Below are positions 4,630-52,210 of a DNA stretch of 64,000 nucleotides, one piece after another. This DNA is from a virus. A model generated the notes under the pieces. It saw nothing but the letters and a program-made list of their open reading frames with translations, was not told where the DNA came from and made no database searches. How positions within the stretch are numbered: the first letter of the stretch is position 1; the number at the start of each line of letters is the position of its first letter. The DNA is taken from the IMG/VR virus record IMGVR_UViG_3300046171_000314, positions 1-64,000 of that record; one strand, 5' to 3'. A program made the translations under genes and the position numbers.

Positions 4630-6114
4630 ATGAGAAATGGTAACGAATGGCGAAAAAGCCACCACTTGACAGCGAAATCACTCGGTGTCAATGTTCCTGT
4701 AGAGTCTAAAGGTTCTATGTTCTACTGTACAAGTAGATTCACTCTCAATAAGTTTGCGGTAGCCTTGTGTCAGTATGCAAAGCACAACGGTGCAAAAATG
4801 CCGACACAAGAAATCGTGGCTCGTTGGGTTGAGGGTGCAAACAATCGTTTCCTTACTACAGGACACGGTGATAAAGTTTCAACCGATCCTAAGGTCAAGA
4901 TTGTCGTGGCAGAAACCCCTGAAAAGGTATCACCACGAATGGCAATGGCTTTGAACGGTGGTGTTCTTCACGAGAGTGCTCACTTGCTCTATACAATGCA
5001 GGAAGACTTGACCGCTGATATGATGTGGACAATCGTTGCTCCTCGTTGGGCTATCGTGAAAGATTGGAGCAAGTATCAAGGACTTCTTCTTCAATGGATC
5101 AACCTTGTAGAAGACATTGTGATTGAGCGAGCATTGAGAAGAAACTTTGTCAATACTCACAATGACCTTGCGGATCTTCAAGACTTGATCCTGAAGATGG
5201 AGGGCAAAGACGATGATAAGGTAGCCGAGTGGCGAGAAAAGGTCACACCTTTGGGAATCGTTGGTGGTGCTTTCCGAGACATTGGTCTTGGGTACAACAC
5301 GGTGCTTGGTCGAAAGGCTATCGCACTGTACAAAGAGTTCCCAAAAGAGTGGGCTATGGTTACTGACGGACCTCTCACCCCTCTCTTGAAAGAGGCTATC
5401 GCTGTTGTCGATGACCCACTTGCTAGTTTCAGAATCGCTATGTCAGTGGTTGGCATAATCGCTGAGTTGGCAGGTGATGGTGCTGACAAGCCACAAGATC
5501 CTGAGGATGGTGATGGTGGTGAGTCTGAGTACGATCCTTGTCCAAAGTGTGGTGCTAGCCCTAGCAACCTTGTTATTCGTGGTGTCTATGATGACTTTGG
5601 TCGAAAGGTCAAAGGCAAGGCTATGTTGGTCTGTCGTGTTTGCGGTCACACTCAAATCATCGATGTCGATACTGAAGGCGAAGGTGGCGGAACTGTGAAA
5701 GGTGAAACCCCTGACTTTGAGGATATGGATCAAGATCAGCCTGATAGCCCCGAAGGTGGTGGCGGTGATGGCGAAGGTGATGGTCAAGGCGACGATGGCG
5801 AAGATGCCGATGGTGAAGCAGGCGGCTCAGATGGTGAGGACACTGATGGAGAAGAATCCGATGGTAACGGTGGCGGTGATTCTGATGGCGATGAGTCAGA
5901 GGGAGATACCGAAGGCGAAGGCGATGCCGATGGAGATGACTCTGACAGTGGAGACGCTGATGGTGACTCCTCTGATGGTAGCGGTGACTCTTCTAAGACT
6001 CCCACTTTCAAGGTGGGTGACGAGGCTATGTTGCAAGGCATCAAGGTTCGAGTCACCTATGCAGGGGCTGTCAAGTCAGATGGTACGCAGGACTTAGAAG
6101 TTGAGCCTTGCTAA
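4630..6114 (+). CDS. Metallopeptidase-like CobT-N/DUF2201-type partner with acidic tail
   Basis: A 494-residue protein. HESAH at about 114-118 matches the HExxH zinc-peptidase signature of the putative metallopeptidase domain found with VWA-like domains, and NLVEDIVIE at about 157-165 fits the downstream helix with acidic ligands. A zinc ribbon (CPKC ... CRVC) lies at about 298-335. Residues 345-455 are an extreme Asp/Glu/Gly/Ser tail, as in the acidic middle of CobT, followed by a small basic beta domain. It has no VWA domain; that part is encoded separately at 2372-3646. I infer a three-protein machine of AAA+ ring, VWA and this protein. The SD is AGGAGG. Confidence 0.8.
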   Translation: MRNGNEWRKSHHLTAKSLGVNVPVESKGSMFYCTSRFTLNKFAVALCQYAKHNGAKMPTQEIVARWVEGANNRFLTTGHGDKVSTDPKVKIVVAETPEKVSPRMAMALNGGVLHESAHLLYTMQEDLTADMMWTIVAPRWAIVKDWSKYQGLLLQWINLVEDIVIERALRRNFVNTHNDLADLQDLILKMEGKDDDKVAEWREKVTPLGIVGGAFRDIGLGYNTVLGRKAIALYKEFPKEWAMVTDGPLTPLLKEAIAVVDDPLASFRIAMSVVGIIAELAGDGADKPQDPEDGDGGESEYDPCPKCGASPSNLVIRGVYDDFGRKVKGKAMLVCRVCGHTQIIDVDTEGEGGGTVKGETPDFEDMDQDQPDSPEGGGGDGEGDGQGDDGEDADGEAGGSDGEDTDGEESDGNGGGDSDGDESEGDTEGEGDADGDDSDSGDADGDSSDGSGDSSKTPTFKVGDEAMLQGIKVRVTYAGAVKSDGTQDLEVEPC

Positions 6115-10580: not shown

Positions 10581-10867
10581 CTCTTAGAAAAATTCGCACA
10601 ACCCGAAATTTTCGAATTGAAAACGCATTGATTTTCTCAACCTTTTACTTTTTTCCCCTTTTTATCCCTCCCTTAAAGATGGGTATTTCTTCTATACACA
10701 GAGCAAAGCAAAGGAGGGTTGTATCCTCAGAGAGAACAAAGAGATAGTGTCCTCAATTTGACCCCCCTTGTTATATATGAGGTTTTTCAAAACGGAATTG
10801 CGAATTAGTGAATTGTGAAATTGTTTTTGTAATTTTTTTTCGGAGGTTTGATTTTAACCCCCCTTTG
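10581..10867. other. Intergenic gap without a convincing gene
   Basis: About 290 AT-rich bases between the deaminase gene and the next operon. I see no supported gene, only very short reading frames without good starts. A class 2-type promoter lies at its right end. Confidence 0.5.
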
Positions 10868-10884
10868 GTATTCTGTTTATATTT
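10868..10884 (+). promoter_or_regulatory. Class 2 promoter motif
   Basis: TATTCTGTTTATA, a variant of TAATYTKYCTATA, about 25 bases before the start at 10907. Confidence 0.55.
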
Positions 10885-22860: not shown

Positions 22861-23148
22861 GTTCTCTTTGGTAATATATTGCAAGGGTGATGCACAGCAA
22901 TCTTTACAAACCAAAAAATCAAGAGAAACCGCAGCACTTGACAACGTTGCGTACCTGTATGGTGCTAGTCAAACACCACCCTGTTTTTATCCCCCTCTAG
23001 TAGGGGGATTTTTTTGTACCAACAACAAACGAACCGAAGTTCTTTTCGGTATCACTTTTCAAGGGTACGAACAGCAAAACAATTTTTACTGATTCCATTA
23101 CATCAATACAAAACGTACCCTGTACTCATTTCTTACTCGGAGGTCATT
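22861..23148. other. Non-coding gap before the DUF2828 gene
   Basis: About 290 bases without a supported gene. The first 150 bases can form small hairpins (GGTG/CACC, AGCAC/GTGCT) and end at a strong terminator near 22990-23016, so a short non-coding transcript is possible. A second hairpin (ACCGAA/TTCGGT) lies at about 23033-23050 in the leader of the next gene. Confidence 0.4.
22990..23016 (+). terminator. Rho-independent terminator
   Basis: TCCCCCT and AGGGGGA pair around CTAGT, followed by TTTTTTT. Confidence 0.85.
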
Positions 23149-24519
23149 ATGCAAGCAGTACTCACACAAAACGGAGCGGTCACTAATGAAGAGAGTGGCT
23201 CTAGCCTCCTCGATATGTTCTTCTCAATTTCAAGTTATCGCTACAAAGGCTTAGAGGTTGCTGTGGGAGATTTTTGGAAGGCTTGGGAGGAAAACCAAAC
23301 ACTTGCTCTTAGGCTCTTATTCTATCTTCGTGATGTTCGTGGAGGTCAAGGTCAAAGACAAATGTTCCGAGATATTCTAAAAGACCTTGCATCAAAGATT
23401 GACCTTTCAGAAAAGTTTGTTCGTTGGATAGCCGATTATGGTCGATGGGATGACACCTTTGAATTGCTCGACACTATGAATGAGAGCAAACTTAAAACAA
23501 TCTTGGCTATTGAACTGACATTGGGAAACAAACTCCTTGCGAAGTGGATGCCTCGTGAGAAATCAGCGAAGAAGGAACTTGCGAAGAAACTTCGCAAACT
23601 CTTAGGCTTGTCTTCGAAGGACTACCGCAAACTTATTGCAGGAAACACTGAGGTAGTGGAAACACTTATGTGCTCTCAGCAATGGTCGGATATTGTGTAT
23701 TCCCACGTCCCATCGCAGGCAGGACTTCGATATAAAGGGGCATTCGCAAAGAGAGATGGGGAAAGATACCAAGCCTATGTTCAGAGTGTTCTAGATGGCA
23801 ATGCAGCCATCAAAGCAGGAACTTTGTACCCTCACCAATTGGTGGAGAAGTGTTTTGTAGGACAGTATGACAAAACTGTACAGGCAATGTGGGAAAATCT
23901 GCCCGATTACTTAGCAGGCACAGGGGAAAGTATTCTCCCTGTCGTAGATGTTTCAGGATCAATGTCAGGAAATCCTATGATAGTGGCGATTGCTCTTGGG
24001 ATATACCTTGCAGAAAGAAACGAAGGTCGCTTCAAGAATAAGTTCCTTACCTTTTCAGAAAGCCCACAATGGGCAAGTGTGCCCAAAGGGTCTTTGGATT
24101 TGAAGGTGCAGAAAGTTAGGCAAGCCGATTGGGGATATAACACTAACTTGGAGAAGACCTTTCATCTTATAAGAGACCTTGCGATTAAGAATCAAAGTGT
24201 TCCTGATAAGGTCATTATTTTATCCGATATGGAATTTGATGCGGCTTGTGAAGTCAGACAATCTTCAACTCAAACATTCTTTAAATCAATGAAAGCAATG
24301 TTTGCTCAGAAAAATCTCCAAATGCCTTCGATAATATTTTGGAACTTATCATCTAGATCGAACTACCCTGTTCGAGTGAATGAGTGGGGCACAGTTATGG
24401 TCAGTGGGTTTTCGCCAAGCATAATGAAACACATCTTGAAAGGTGGTGGAGAAATCACACCTTTCCAATTGATGTTGCAGGCATTAGGCTCAGATCGATA
24501 TGCTCAAATTTATTTGTAA
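23149..24519 (+). CDS. DUF2828/TROVE-like protein with C-terminal VWA domain
   Basis: A 456-residue protein. The N-terminal half is helical with LRDVRGGQGQR (about residues 61-71) and ADYGRWDD (about 94), the signature of DUF2828, a family related to the TROVE RNA-binding module of Ro60. The C-terminal VWA domain has VVDVSGSMSG (about 268), YNTNL and ILSDME, so its metal site is intact. Ro60-type proteins bind Y RNAs and misfolded RNA; whether DUF2828 does is not established. Start set by CGGAGGTCATT. It is flanked by non-coding stretches on both sides, with a tRNA just downstream. Confidence 0.85.
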   Translation: MQAVLTQNGAVTNEESGSSLLDMFFSISSYRYKGLEVAVGDFWKAWEENQTLALRLLFYLRDVRGGQGQRQMFRDILKDLASKIDLSEKFVRWIADYGRWDDTFELLDTMNESKLKTILAIELTLGNKLLAKWMPREKSAKKELAKKLRKLLGLSSKDYRKLIAGNTEVVETLMCSQQWSDIVYSHVPSQAGLRYKGAFAKRDGERYQAYVQSVLDGNAAIKAGTLYPHQLVEKCFVGQYDKTVQAMWENLPDYLAGTGESILPVVDVSGSMSGNPMIVAIALGIYLAERNEGRFKNKFLTFSESPQWASVPKGSLDLKVQKVRQADWGYNTNLEKTFHLIRDLAIKNQSVPDKVIILSDMEFDAACEVRQSSTQTFFKSMKAMFAQKNLQMPSIIFWNLSSRSNYPVRVNEWGTVMVSGFSPSIMKHILKGGGEITPFQLMLQALGSDRYAQIYL

Positions 24520-46848: not shown

Positions 46849-47035
46849 GCAGTATCTTCCAAAAGTACTTGGATAGGTTTTGGCTGACAGCATAGGTGTC
46901 CAATATCATATACTCAGGAGGGTTCATTATTTCGATAGTGAACTCTCTATCGTTTTCAGCAAAGACCCTACAAACCATACCCTCTTTGAGGGTTGATCCC
47001 AAGTCTTGCAGTATGACATACACTTTTCCCACCAT
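46838..47035 (-). CDS. Possible 65-aa protein
   Basis: Overlaps the end of the convergent upstream gene by 11 bases and lacks a clear ribosome site. The product (KVYVILQDLGSTLKEGMVCR) could be a small beta-barrel, SH3-like protein. Kept at low confidence because of the weak start. Confidence 0.45.
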   Translation of the reverse strand: MVGKVYVILQDLGSTLKEGMVCRVFAENDREFTIEIMNPPEYMILDTYAVSQNLSKYFWKILPIP

Positions 47036-47088
47036 ATCTATTTTCGGTTATTGTCTTATTATTGGGGGACATATGTGAGAGGTGCATT

Positions 47089-47490
47089 ATGTCAGAAGTC
47101 ATAGACCTAACCCAAATCCTGAGAAGGAAAAAAATGGTGAGATACCTAACTGAAGGTATTCCCCTCGACCTATCCCCTGAGTTACTTGAAGAATTCAAGT
47201 TTCGGTTGGAACACGTCATTTCAGAGAAGGGCTTGTATACAAAGCACAACTATGAGTGCGAAGGGTTCGATGTGGATGAAATCGAAATCTATTTTAGTGA
47301 AGAGTATGAGATCGAAAATCGCTTGATGACCATTGCTTTCATAGATGGGGTGTTGACCTTCTTAATGCCTGATACTCTTGTGGTAGGCACAGAAAATTTT
47401 ACACTATTTGGTCGCATCGCAGTAGCCACCATTAACTGTTGGGAAAGTTTTGAAGAACTAATCAAGTTCATAACACAAGAACTCGATTAG
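47089..47490 (+). CDS. Unknown 133-aa acidic protein
   Basis: ATG after GAGAGGTGCATT. Acidic alpha/beta protein with LTFLMPDTLVVGTE strands. A TTATTGTCTTATTA sequence about 35 bases upstream is a weak class 2 match. No family recognised. Confidence 0.65.
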   Translation: MSEVIDLTQILRRKKMVRYLTEGIPLDLSPELLEEFKFRLEHVISEKGLYTKHNYECEGFDVDEIEIYFSEEYEIENRLMTIAFIDGVLTFLMPDTLVVGTENFTLFGRIAVATINCWESFEELIKFITQELD

Positions 47491-49076: not shown

Positions 49077-49486
49077 GAGTTCTTATCGTCTCGCAACTTA
49101 TCAAGGTTGTCAAGATACGGTGGTGATTTGACTTTGTAATCCCAAAGCCAAGCCCATCGTTTTCTCGTTGCAAGATACTCTAAGTTAGAGTCATTGACAT
49201 ATGCCTCTTGTTCGGCTCGGATACAATAGTAGGAGATGTTCCCTTGCTTATGTATCAACAGACCAATGAACCAATCCCATAGATACACAAACCAAAAGCC
49301 AATAAAGAACAGGTCAAGGTATTGTTGGTAGTGAATGGTTTCGTGGTTGCGGAGTTTCTCATCCATCTCACCACGAGCGATAACGACAAAGCCTAACGTG
49401 ATAGCCCCAATGGTGATAGGGGATACCTTACTTAGCCACACAGGTATGCGACTATTCTCAATAAATATGGGTTTCCAATTTTTCAA
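49073..49486 (-). CDS. Membrane HExxH metallopeptidase-like protein
   Basis: A 137-residue protein. NHETIHYQQYLDL (about 47-59) is HExxH followed by Gln, then two hydrophobic segments (FFIGFWFVYLWDWFIGLL), and RAEQEAYVNDSNLEYLATRKR with a possible third metal ligand. The HExIHxxQ...E.EAY arrangement is shared by uncharacterised phage and Bacteroidetes proteins. Overlaps its neighbours at both ends. Confidence 0.7.
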   Translation of the reverse strand: MKNWKPIFIENSRIPVWLSKVSPITIGAITLGFVVIARGEMDEKLRNHETIHYQQYLDLFFIGFWFVYLWDWFIGLLIHKQGNISYYCIRAEQEAYVNDSNLEYLATRKRWAWLWDYKVKSPPYLDNLDKLRDDKNS

Positions 49487-49899
49487 AATACAAATCCTCC
49501 ATCTGATCCCTCTTGGATTACATCAAAGGCATAATCCAAAAGACTCAAAATCTGTTTCTGTTGTTTTCCTATTAAGGATTGCATATCGACTATCAAATGA
49601 TTGATAGTGTTTTCGTAAATCTTCGCATCCCCAATGTATGATAAAAGAGTATCGTTCAAGGCGTTCTCAAAGTCAAATCTTGGTGCTACGGTGGAAGCGA
49701 TGTTCCACGCATCGTTTTCTGCGTGGTTACGTCTGACATTTAACAAATGTCGTTCAAAATCTAAATCTCGACCATCCTCAGAAAGAGCCTCTATAAGAGA
49801 AGCCACTTGCAAAAGAGCCTCTCGGTTTTTATTTTTTAGACCTCTTTTCCAAATGGTGAATAGTTTCTTTTTGTGTTCTTGACTAATTGGTTTTTGCAT
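49483..49899 (-). CDS. QA-helical-module protein
   Basis: A 138-residue protein with KKKLFTIWKRGLKNKNREAL then LQVASLIEALSEDG at the N-terminus, close to the modules at 34297 and 34783. ATG after AAGGAGTTCCTA. Class 2 promoter motif at 49926. Confidence 0.75.
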   Translation of the reverse strand: MQKPISQEHKKKLFTIWKRGLKNKNREALLQVASLIEALSEDGRDLDFERHLLNVRRNHAENDAWNIASTVAPRFDFENALNDTLLSYIGDAKIYENTINHLIVDMQSLIGKQQKQILSLLDYAFDVIQEGSDGGFVF

Positions 49900-49925: not shown

Positions 49926-49938
49926 TATAGAAAGAATA
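49926..49938 (-). promoter_or_regulatory. Class 2 promoter motif
   Basis: Minus-strand TATTCTTTCTATA, about 27 bases before the start at 49899. Confidence 0.65.
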
Positions 49939-49944
49939 AAAAGA

Positions 49945-50097
49945 AACCCCTCGTTTCCTCAAAGTTCTGAACACCGACTGACTTGCAAGTGTCGAAAGGA
50001 AACAAGGGGGACATATCTCGTAGCAAAGATGCGATCTCGCAAGCAGGGAACATCAATGTTCAGAACTTTGCTCTGCGGTGAGATTTTTCTTTTCTAA
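49945..50097. ncRNA. Candidate structured RNA with pseudoknot
   Basis: No gene fits. Stem A: CCCCTCGTTTCCT (49947-49959) with AGGAAACAAGGGG (49997-50009), one mismatch. Stem B: CAAAGTTCTGAACA (49960-49973) with TGTTCAGAACTTTG (50057-50070), perfect 14 pairs. The order A-B-A'-B' is a pseudoknot. A hairpin (CGAC...GTCG) lies inside A, and ATCTC..GCAG with CTGC..GAGAT (50034-50084) encloses B'. GAACA-TCAA-TGTTC offers a competing local fold for B'. T-rich tracts follow on both strands, so orientation is open. Confidence 0.65.
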
Positions 50098-50279
50098 TTT
50101 TTGTTTGAAACAAAAGCGTTGAGTTTCTTGGCTTCCTTGATTACATCTTCCGCTGTATATCCTTTCCACTCTTTATCGCCCGAAGCAGCGAACTGCATTT
50201 GAGCATTGTTTCTAAGAATTTCTTCGGCTAAGTGAAGGAGTTGTTGACGAATTTGATAAGCAGTTTGATTGTCTGCCAT
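50094..50279 (-). CDS. Small helical phage protein
   Basis: A 61-residue protein after AAAGAGGTGACTC. AYQIRQQLLHLAEEIL, KEWKGYTAEDVIKEAKKLNA and a lysine-rich end match a small family I know from T4-like and other large phages. Function unknown. A GTATAGTATA sequence about 60 bases upstream may be its promoter. Confidence 0.75.
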   Translation of the reverse strand: MADNQTAYQIRQQLLHLAEEILRNNAQMQFAASGDKEWKGYTAEDVIKEAKKLNAFVSNKN

Positions 50280-50292
50280 GAGTCACCTCTTT

Positions 50293-50316
50293 ATGTGTGT
50301 GTATGTGTGTGTATGA
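50293..50316. repeat. TG/TA microsatellite
   Basis: An imperfect run of TGTG and TATG units lies directly upstream of the small helical gene's ribosome site. Slippage here would change leader length. Confidence 0.5.
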
Positions 50317-50427
50317 ACCTATCTGATTGAAGGTTCGATATACTATACCCAAGAAAACTTCCTTGTCTTTTATTTATTTTTTTCAAATAAGACCCTTGTG
50401 TTTTCGGTACTATCCACAAAGGAGAGA

Positions 50428-50642: not shown

Positions 50643-51143
50643 ATGGCTCGTTCAGACAAAGAAAAGAAAGAAATATATGACAAGTGGAAAGGCTTGATCA
50701 ATATGAGCCAATCGGCTCTCGATGAATGGGCTAAGAATCCTGCTCGTTTGGAAGCCTCTCTCAATAGAGCGAAAGCCAAAGATGAGGGTGGGATTCAAAG
50801 TGGTCTTGATTCTCTCCACCGCATCAAAAGAAGAAAGTCCAAACCTGTCAAAGAATGGTCTGACCAAGATTACGACAATGCGGCTCAGGAGAATGGGTTC
50901 AATGGTCGTATGTTGGGCGGCAAGATTGGACAGCCTGTAGGTAGTACAGGAATGTCCAAGTGGGAAATCTCACTACGCAATTGGGGACACGACCCTGCAT
51001 TGAGTTCAAGCCCTGCTAACGCCAAGTATAAGGCTTGGAAGAAAGCAAACAAGGATGCTATTGCAAAGTCCAAAGCGAAAGCCAAGAAGAAAGCCTCTGT
51101 CGAAAGAGTTGCATATCAATATTTAATTTCTAGGAGCAGATAA
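50643..51143 (+). CDS. C-terminally RVAxxYL-tagged protein
   Basis: A 166-residue protein. WKGLINMSQSALDEW, a basic RIKRRKSK region and SKWEISLRNWGHDP match a recurrent phage domain (DUF9824-like). The C-terminus is an Ala/Lys helix ending KKKASVERVAYQYLISRSR, the tag preceded by KKAS. Coupled to the next gene by TAATG. Confidence 0.75.
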   Translation: MARSDKEKKEIYDKWKGLINMSQSALDEWAKNPARLEASLNRAKAKDEGGIQSGLDSLHRIKRRKSKPVKEWSDQDYDNAAQENGFNGRMLGGKIGQPVGSTGMSKWEISLRNWGHDPALSSSPANAKYKAWKKANKDAIAKSKAKAKKKASVERVAYQYLISRSR

Positions 51144-52210
51144 TGAGAAATAGGAGAGCAGGGAAAAAGTTCCCCCCATCAATGGGAATGAGAACCCCAA
51201 GCAATCAGAAGCACAAGAAAGATCCAAGACCAAAGGCTCGCCCTGCGGACACTTGGGATGACAAACAAGTCTCTCGTGGAAACTCTGCTTGGTATCGTGC
51301 TATGGATCGAATGATTGACAAGGGAATGTCCGAGCGAGATATCGTTCATTCTATTTCAAAAAAGTTCAAGATTGACCCTATGGCTATCAAGAAAGAACTT
51401 CGTGGTCGTATGCGAATGGCAAATGAGATGCTTGCCGACAGTGATGGCAACTATATGAGTGTTCAGAACATTGAGAGCATACTTAATGCCGCTGAGTTCC
51501 TTTCTGAAATGATCTATGATGGCGACGAAATGGAAGATTGGGTTGAGGACAAAATCTCTGTTGCTCGTGCCGCCCTGTCAGATGTCGCTCGCTATTACAA
51601 CAGTGGTCGTTCTATGTACGCATCAAGTCGAACCTTCTTGGCACATTCATACAAAGAAGCCCTCCGAAAAATCCAAATTCAAAAACTTATGGGTCAGGGA
51701 CAGTTTTCTTTGATTACCGCATATCGAAATGAGAACTCTAAGTCAGAGAACAAGCGTATCCAAACAGAGTTGAGAGTAGAACTTGCGAAAATGGGATACA
51801 AGCCTGAAACCTTGAAAGCATCTTGGGATGGAAAAACCGAACAATCTCTTCTTGTAAAAGGAATACCCTTTGGAAAGGCGAAAGCACTTGGCATCAAGTA
51901 TGGACAAGACGCTATTATTTGGAAAGGAGCAGGAGAGCCTTGGGTTGGGATGTATTATTTCAATGGCAAGAACGCAGGGAAGGTTGAGGTCGCTCTCGAT
52001 ACAAAGAATATGTCTGTCGATTATGATGTATCAATGGAGAAAGACCTGTACAGTAAGGCTCGTGGTTTATCCTTTGAGTTGGATTTCCATTGGGGTAAGT
52101 TTGTGAATACAAGCGGAGGTTACATAAAACCAAAGCACCTTGAGGAATGGCTAAGAACCTACTTTGATTTGGAAGCCATTGTGTCTAACAACGAGATACT
52201 TATCAATTAA
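51143..52210 (+). CDS. DUF3293-containing virion-type protein
   Basis: A 355-residue protein. The N-terminus is basic. SVQNIESILNAAEFLSEMIY then DGDEMEDWVEDKIS (about 112-145) is a helical module common in T4-like structural genes. The C-terminal half (FSLITAYRNENSKSENKR ... GQDAIIWKG) follows DUF3293, a family of unknown function. Fusion of the two is notable. Class 2 operon. Confidence 0.75.
   Translation: MRNRRAGKKFPPSMGMRTPSNQKHKKDPRPKARPADTWDDKQVSRGNSAWYRAMDRMIDKGMSERDIVHSISKKFKIDPMAIKKELRGRMRMANEMLADSDGNYMSVQNIESILNAAEFLSEMIYDGDEMEDWVEDKISVARAALSDVARYYNSGRSMYASSRTFLAHSYKEALRKIQIQKLMGQGQFSLITAYRNENSKSENKRIQTELRVELAKMGYKPETLKASWDGKTEQSLLVKGIPFGKAKALGIKYGQDAIIWKGAGEPWVGMYYFNGKNAGKVEVALDTKNMSVDYDVSMEKDLYSKARGLSFELDFHWGKFVNTSGGYIKPKHLEEWLRTYFDLEAIVSNNEILIN

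What the first reader, a model, noticed from the sequence alone, without database searches (positions are those of the whole stretch)
49945..50097. Pseudoknot-forming non-coding element
Two long stems, 12 of 13 and 14 of 14 pairs, interleave in the order A-B-A'-B', with an inner hairpin, an enclosing third stem and a competing local hairpin for B'. About 150 bases have no coding potential on either strand. T-rich ends on both sides would suit termination. This is too organised for a plain terminator and I know no matching RNA family.
Basis: partly seen in the sequence, partly recalled or inferred. Interest (0 to 1): 0.75.

Follow-up and report, generated by a model that had tools for sequence, protein, structure and literature searches.

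The report
Knotted 3' end of phage mRNA
A large uncultured bacterial virus ends the message of one small gene in an elaborately knotted RNA structure, and a related virus keeps the same knot although many of its letters have changed in matched pairs, so the RNA shape is real and under selection even though its job is not yet proven.

Summary
The RNA strand is the minus strand. Stem B is 15-19 bp and stem A 13 bp, in the order B-A-B'-A'. This is the strongest interleaved stem pair in the 147.9-kb phage record and in a 289-kb relative (weaker stem -23.2 kcal/mol; next best -16.8). The relative carries the same element at the same place, 3' of the same small gene. An identical UUUCUUUUU follows stem A. 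The conserved block is one transcription unit: promoter-like site, 5' hairpin, CA-repeat leader, 61-aa gene, knotted RNA, U-tract. In the relative the next gene is convergent, so this is not a leader of the downstream gene. Best reading: a pseudoknotted intrinsic terminator and 3' UTR that ends, and probably protects, the small mRNA. It may also accumulate as a stable ~130-150-nt RNA. No Rfam match; no further homologue in IMG/VR, 50 related records or ~85,000 species genomes. Transcription and function were not tested. A new, narrowly distributed RNA family; moderately interesting.

The parts
50342..50369 (-). promoter-like site of the transcription unit (AAGACA - 16 nt - TATAGT); only the TATAGT(A/G)TA part is conserved in the relative
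   Evidence: consensus match only, 1 found against 1.3 expected in shuffles
50315..50336 (-). 5' leader hairpin GAACCU-loop-AGGUUC, predicted at or near the transcript 5' end; relative has GAACUU-loop-GAGUUC
   Evidence: sequence comparison and fold; a 5' hairpin of unrelated sequence is also in L140, L141, L184
50294..50312 (-). CA-repeat leader ACACACACATACACACACA upstream of the ribosome binding site
   Evidence: shared with distant relatives of the gene
50094..50279 (-). 61-aa gene, phrog_653-like (E 0.012), unknown function; 80% identical in the 289-kb relative
50052..50070 (-). stem B, 5' arm (15 pairs conserved at aligned positions; 19 contiguous in the window)
50036..50044 (-). stem C, 5' arm (GCUUGCGAG), nested inside B
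   Evidence: one compensatory change
49997..50009 (-). stem A, 5' arm (CCCCUUGUUUCCU)
49981..49989 (-). stem C, 3' arm (CUUGCAAGU)
49960..49978 (-). stem B, 3' arm
49947..49959 (-). stem A, 3' arm (AGGAAACGAGGGG), starts directly after stem B 3' arm
   Evidence: 7 double changes, 1 broken pair out of 13
49937..49946 (-). U-tract UUUCUUUUUA; UUUCUUUUU identical in the relative; predicted transcript end

Best explanation
This is the 3' untranslated end of a single-gene phage transcription unit of about 400 nt (roughly 50336 to 49937, minus strand) that encodes a 61-aa protein. The RNA folds as a long hairpin (stem B, then stem C) whose apical loop contains the 5' arm of stem A. That arm pairs with the sequence directly 3' of stem B, making an H-type pseudoknot, and a U-tract follows. 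As RNA polymerase leaves the gene, B/C forms first and presents the A arm; A then closes next to the U-tract and terminates transcription. The knotted 3' end, together with the 5' leader hairpin, probably shields the mRNA from exonucleases, and after decay of the coding part it may persist as a stable ~130-150-nt RNA. Shown: strand, three helices with covariation, U-tract, linkage to the gene, absence of a dependent downstream gene in the relative. Inferred: transcription, termination, protection. Stacking of all three full-length helices at once looks geometrically tight (the linker between the A 5' arm and the C 3' arm is only 7 nt), so B or C may bend or fray at its ends.
For: A homologous element lies in L003 (289-kb record) and L002, immediately 3' of the 80%-identical 61-aa gene in the same orientation. 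The blastn block between the two genomes (49935-50350) runs from the promoter-like site to the U-tract, i.e. one transcription unit. Covariation: 36/37 pairs kept, 9 double changes, slid controls 0-1; with the same substituted columns and random letters, P = 0.0005. U.G pairs (one in A, two in the B extension) make sense only on the minus strand. The U-tract after stem A is identical. In L003 the gene beyond the element is on the opposite strand, so the element follows the 61-aa gene and not what lies downstream. 5' hairpin plus CA-rich leader in relatives. Terminator structures protecting mRNA 3' ends from exonucleases, and 5' stem-loops stabilising mRNA, are established (PMC3997798).
Against: Stem B (12 bp) and most of C are invariant in sequence, which is more than a mere terminator or exonuclease block needs and hints at a sequence-specific partner. 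The terminator stem has a 37-nt loop, so the standard terminator scan does not call it. No transcript data. Only two independent sequences. Other genes of these phages make do with simple hairpin terminators (for example after the major capsid gene). Distant relatives of the gene lack the element.
Confidence: 0.6

Rival explanations
1. A trans-acting phage small RNA (about 130-150 nt), made from its own promoter or processed from the 61-aa mRNA, which binds a host or phage protein, or other RNAs, during infection.
For: Invariant 12-bp core of stem B, invariant GAGAUCG and CAGUC segments beside diverged loops; 3'-UTR-derived small RNAs are known in bacteria (PMC7398697).
Against: No promoter-like site just upstream of the element; no conserved single-stranded seed of any length apart from short segments; no transcript data.
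Confidence: 0.25
2. A protein-binding or autoregulatory site in the mRNA, similar in logic to the T4 gene 32 pseudoknot, with the 61-aa product or another phage protein as ligand.
For: Tight linkage of RNA and gene in both genomes; precedent of an autoregulatory mRNA pseudoknot in T4 (PMC3014915).
Against: It sits 3' of the gene, not at the ribosome binding site. Pairing between leader and element is no better than shuffled leaders (30 of 300 and 118 of 300 shuffles as good). Relatives of the protein lack the RNA.
Confidence: 0.08
3. An ordinary, possibly two-way, terminator between genes, with the interleaving a by-product.
For: U-tract on the minus strand in both; in L003, where the genes converge, the opposite strand of stem A also has a T-run (CATTTTCTTTT).
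Against: A terminator alone does not explain conservation and covariation of stems B and C upstream of it, nor that this is the strongest interleaved pair in either genome. In the window the opposite strand has no T-run beside stem A.
Confidence: 0.05
4. A DNA-level element (cruciform, replication or packaging site) rather than an RNA.
For: Long inverted repeats.
Against: G.U pairs fit only one strand; U-tract; position and orientation locked to the gene; one copy per genome.
Confidence: 0.02

Closest known systems
Intrinsic (Rho-independent) terminators
   Same: G+C-rich stem directly followed by a U-tract at the 3' end of a gene
   Different: 37-nt loop, and the loop itself is engaged in a 15-19-bp pseudoknot plus a nested 9-bp helix
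T4/T2/RB69 gene 32 mRNA pseudoknot
   Same: structured H-type pseudoknot in a phage mRNA
   Different: that one is short, lies in the 5' leader and binds gp32 to repress translation; this one is long and 3' of the gene
3'-UTR-derived bacterial small RNAs (for example OppZ, CarZ)
   Same: a possibly stable RNA domain at an mRNA 3' end
   Different: [quoted passage not shown] no seed or leader pairing found here
Phage permuted tmRNA (RF04321)
   Same: in other phages a permuted tmRNA, itself a structured RNA, lies close 3' of a relative of the same small gene
   Different: no tRNA-like domain, tag frame or CCA end here; not detected by ARAGORN or Rfam

Membership tests
Intrinsic terminator | stable stem directly followed by U-tract | tested here: met
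   13-bp stem A, then UUUCUUUUU in both homologues
Intrinsic terminator | short loop (3-8 nt) | tested here: not met
   37-nt loop between the arms; terminator scan finds none
Intrinsic terminator | transcripts end there | not testable with these tools
   no RNA data
Any Rfam 15 family | match to a covariance model | tested here: not met
   none at gathering score; best chance hits E 0.27-7 on 351 bases
tmRNA | tRNA-like domain and tag reading frame | tested here: not met
   ARAGORN finds no tmRNA in either whole record; no Rfam tmRNA match
Autoregulatory mRNA pseudoknot (gene 32 type) | located in the 5' leader near the ribosome binding site | tested here: not met
   element is 3' of the gene
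Y RNA of a Ro/TROVE protein | Ro-like protein encoded in the same genome | tested here: not met
   Ro-like protein at window 23014-24519 has no tblastn match in the relative that carries the element
3'-UTR-derived trans-acting small RNA | processed, accumulating 3' fragment | not testable with these tools
   no RNA data

The most novel reading that the evidence does not exclude
A new class of structured phage RNA: a three-helix pseudoknot whose invariant core binds a specific protein or other partner during infection, released from the 3' end of the 61-aa mRNA, with termination as only one of its tasks.
Probability: 0.25. Interest if true: 0.7.

Novelty: new variant of a known kind. Interest (0 to 1): 0.45.

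Why it matters
Structured RNAs of large phages are hardly catalogued. Here a single window gives a covariation-supported pseudoknot family that Rfam lacks, tied to one small gene that in other phages lies next to tmRNA or tRNA-like RNAs. If confirmed, it would be a clear case of a terminator built as a pseudoknot, and a handle on how large phages stabilise short mRNAs or make stable RNAs from mRNA ends.

Tried and rejected
Plus strand as the RNA strand: rejected by the U.G pairs and by the weaker fold (z -1.9 against -4.1), though in L003 the single-sequence z-score favours the other strand, so the strand call rests on G.U pairs, the U-tract and gene linkage. Leader or riboswitch of the downstream 138-aa gene: rejected because in L003 the neighbour is convergent. 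Y RNA partner of the Ro-like protein: rejected, protein absent from the relative. tmRNA: rejected. Leader-element pairing for autoregulation: not above shuffles. Further homologues: pattern and protein scans of viral contigs, a covariance model over 50 related records and over the 61-aa-gene loci, and two genome-collection scans gave only chance hits in coding sequence. L019/L020 motif match: chance, in coding sequence. INPHARED phages: none for the element or the 61-aa protein.

Full report
What is there. The window is part of a 147,878-base virus record. Its major capsid protein and those of the nearest named records (an uncultured 485-kb phage, Bacillus phage G) place it among very large tailed phages. 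The element lies on the minus strand between a 61-aa gene (50094-50279, minus) and a 138-aa gene (49483-49899, minus).

Observation. On the minus strand the RNA reads: stem B 5' arm 50070-50052, stem C 5' arm 50044-50036, stem A 5' arm 50009-49997, C 3' arm 49989-49981, B 3' arm 49978-49960, A 3' arm 49959-49947, U-tract 49946-49937. A scan of both strands of this record and of the 289-kb relative for interleaved contiguous helices within 160 nt ranks this pair first by a wide margin (weaker stem -23.2 kcal/mol; next -16.8; three Markov-resampled genomes at most -16.7). Single-strand folding of the minus strand is also far more stable than shuffles (z -4.1), though that nested fold cannot contain both stems; nested folds with A or with B/C are about equally good (-53.2 and -52.8).

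Homologue. A protein search with the 61-aa gene found L003 (289-kb record) and the near-identical fragment L002. Directly 3' of the gene both carry the element. The search in that record finds one full copy, as in the window's own record. Whole-record comparison shows one block, 49935-50350 against 47031-47437, 73% identical, that begins at the promoter-like site and ends at the U-tract.

Covariation. In the alignment (A3) three helices are shared: B 15 pairs, C 9 pairs, A 13 pairs. Of 37 pairs 36 stay paired, 9 by changes on both sides and 2 by a one-sided change to or from G.U; one pair in A is broken in L003. Sliding the partners by 1-3 columns leaves 0-1 double changes and 26-60% pairing against 98.6%. 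With the same substituted columns but random letters, keeping as many pairs has probability 0.0005. The window's three G.U pairs that correspond to A.C on the plus strand fix the strand as minus.

Context. In L003 the gene beyond the element points towards it and the 137-aa gene is on that opposite strand too, whereas in the window the 138-aa and 137-aa genes follow on the same strand. So the element stays with the 61-aa gene while its downstream neighbourhood has changed. Upstream, both records have TATAGT(A/G)TA, a hairpin (GAACCU...AGGUUC, GAACUU...GAGUUC) and a CA-repeat leader; L140, L141 and L184 keep hairpin plus CA repeats with unrelated hairpin sequence. I read this as a compact transcription unit with structured 5' and 3' ends.

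Reach. No match in Rfam, INPHARED phages, IMG/VR beyond the two records, 50 related records or one genome for each of ~85,000 species (the three pattern hits are chance). The family is therefore narrow in what is held; distant relatives of the 61-aa gene have other things 3' of it, including permuted tmRNA and unclassified tRNA-like RNAs.

Mechanism. Best reading: a pseudoknotted intrinsic terminator and 3' UTR. Order of synthesis (B 5', C 5', A 5', C 3', B 3', A 3', U-tract) means B/C can close before A; A then closes beside the polymerase at the U-tract. A knotted 3' end should resist 3' exonucleases; terminator stems are known to do this and 5' stem-loops are known to prolong mRNA life (PMC3997798). 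The linker from A 5' to C 3' is only 7 nt, so B, C and A can hardly all stack end to end at full length; a bend at the internal loop between B and C (10-12 nt against 5 nt) or fraying is needed. That is inference from the anatomy.

Limits. Two independent sequences; no RNA data; E-values of the covariance model are rough and it was built from those two sequences. Single-sequence fold statistics for L003 alone do not favour the minus-equivalent strand (z -2.7 against -3.8); the strand call rests on G.U pairs, U-tract and gene linkage. In L003 the opposite strand also has a T-run beside stem A, so there it may terminate both ways.

Noticed in passing
L148, L153, L157, L158, L159, L160, L163, L164 (about 1390-1925), L186 (772-1208): Relatives of the 61-aa gene lie close upstream of a permuted phage tmRNA (Rfam RF04321 in those scanned; tags such as ANDDVYALAA, ANDETFALAA); in L186 the tmRNA ends just upstream of the gene. 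The small protein may be linked to tmRNA loci.
   Followed up: partly
L140 about 1705-1825, L141 about 1739-1895, L184 about 1453-1610: Unclassified tRNA-like RNA 3' of a relative of the 61-aa gene inside a tRNA cluster: acceptor-like and T-arm-like ends with a long insert; L141/L184 carry TAGTTTGACAGG, close to the tmRNA 5' motif. No Rfam or ARAGORN call.
   Followed up: partly
window 50279-50336 and loci L140, L141, L147, L148, L185: CA-repeat leader before the start codon of this small gene recurs in very distant phages, in some with a 5' hairpin of unrelated sequence.
   Followed up: partly
window 23014-24519: Ro/TROVE-like protein candidate (phrog_850 'RNA-binding protein', DUF2828 and DUF7788, vWA-like) with a tRNA-Arg(TCT) gene 215 bases downstream; no match in the 289-kb relative.
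   Followed up: partly
window 10603-10668 and 10781-10883: Two non-coding blocks conserved with the relative (79% and 87% identity) in an intergenic region; between them the relative has an extra reading frame. Possibly promoters or protein-binding sites.
   Followed up: no
L003 about 5255-5345, minus strand: In the relative, where the flanking genes converge, the opposite strand of stem A has a T-run, as for a two-way terminator.
   Followed up: partly
window 51143-52210: Protein with DUF3293 and a borderline match to phage S-adenosylmethionine lyase, a known type of counter-defence protein.
   Followed up: no
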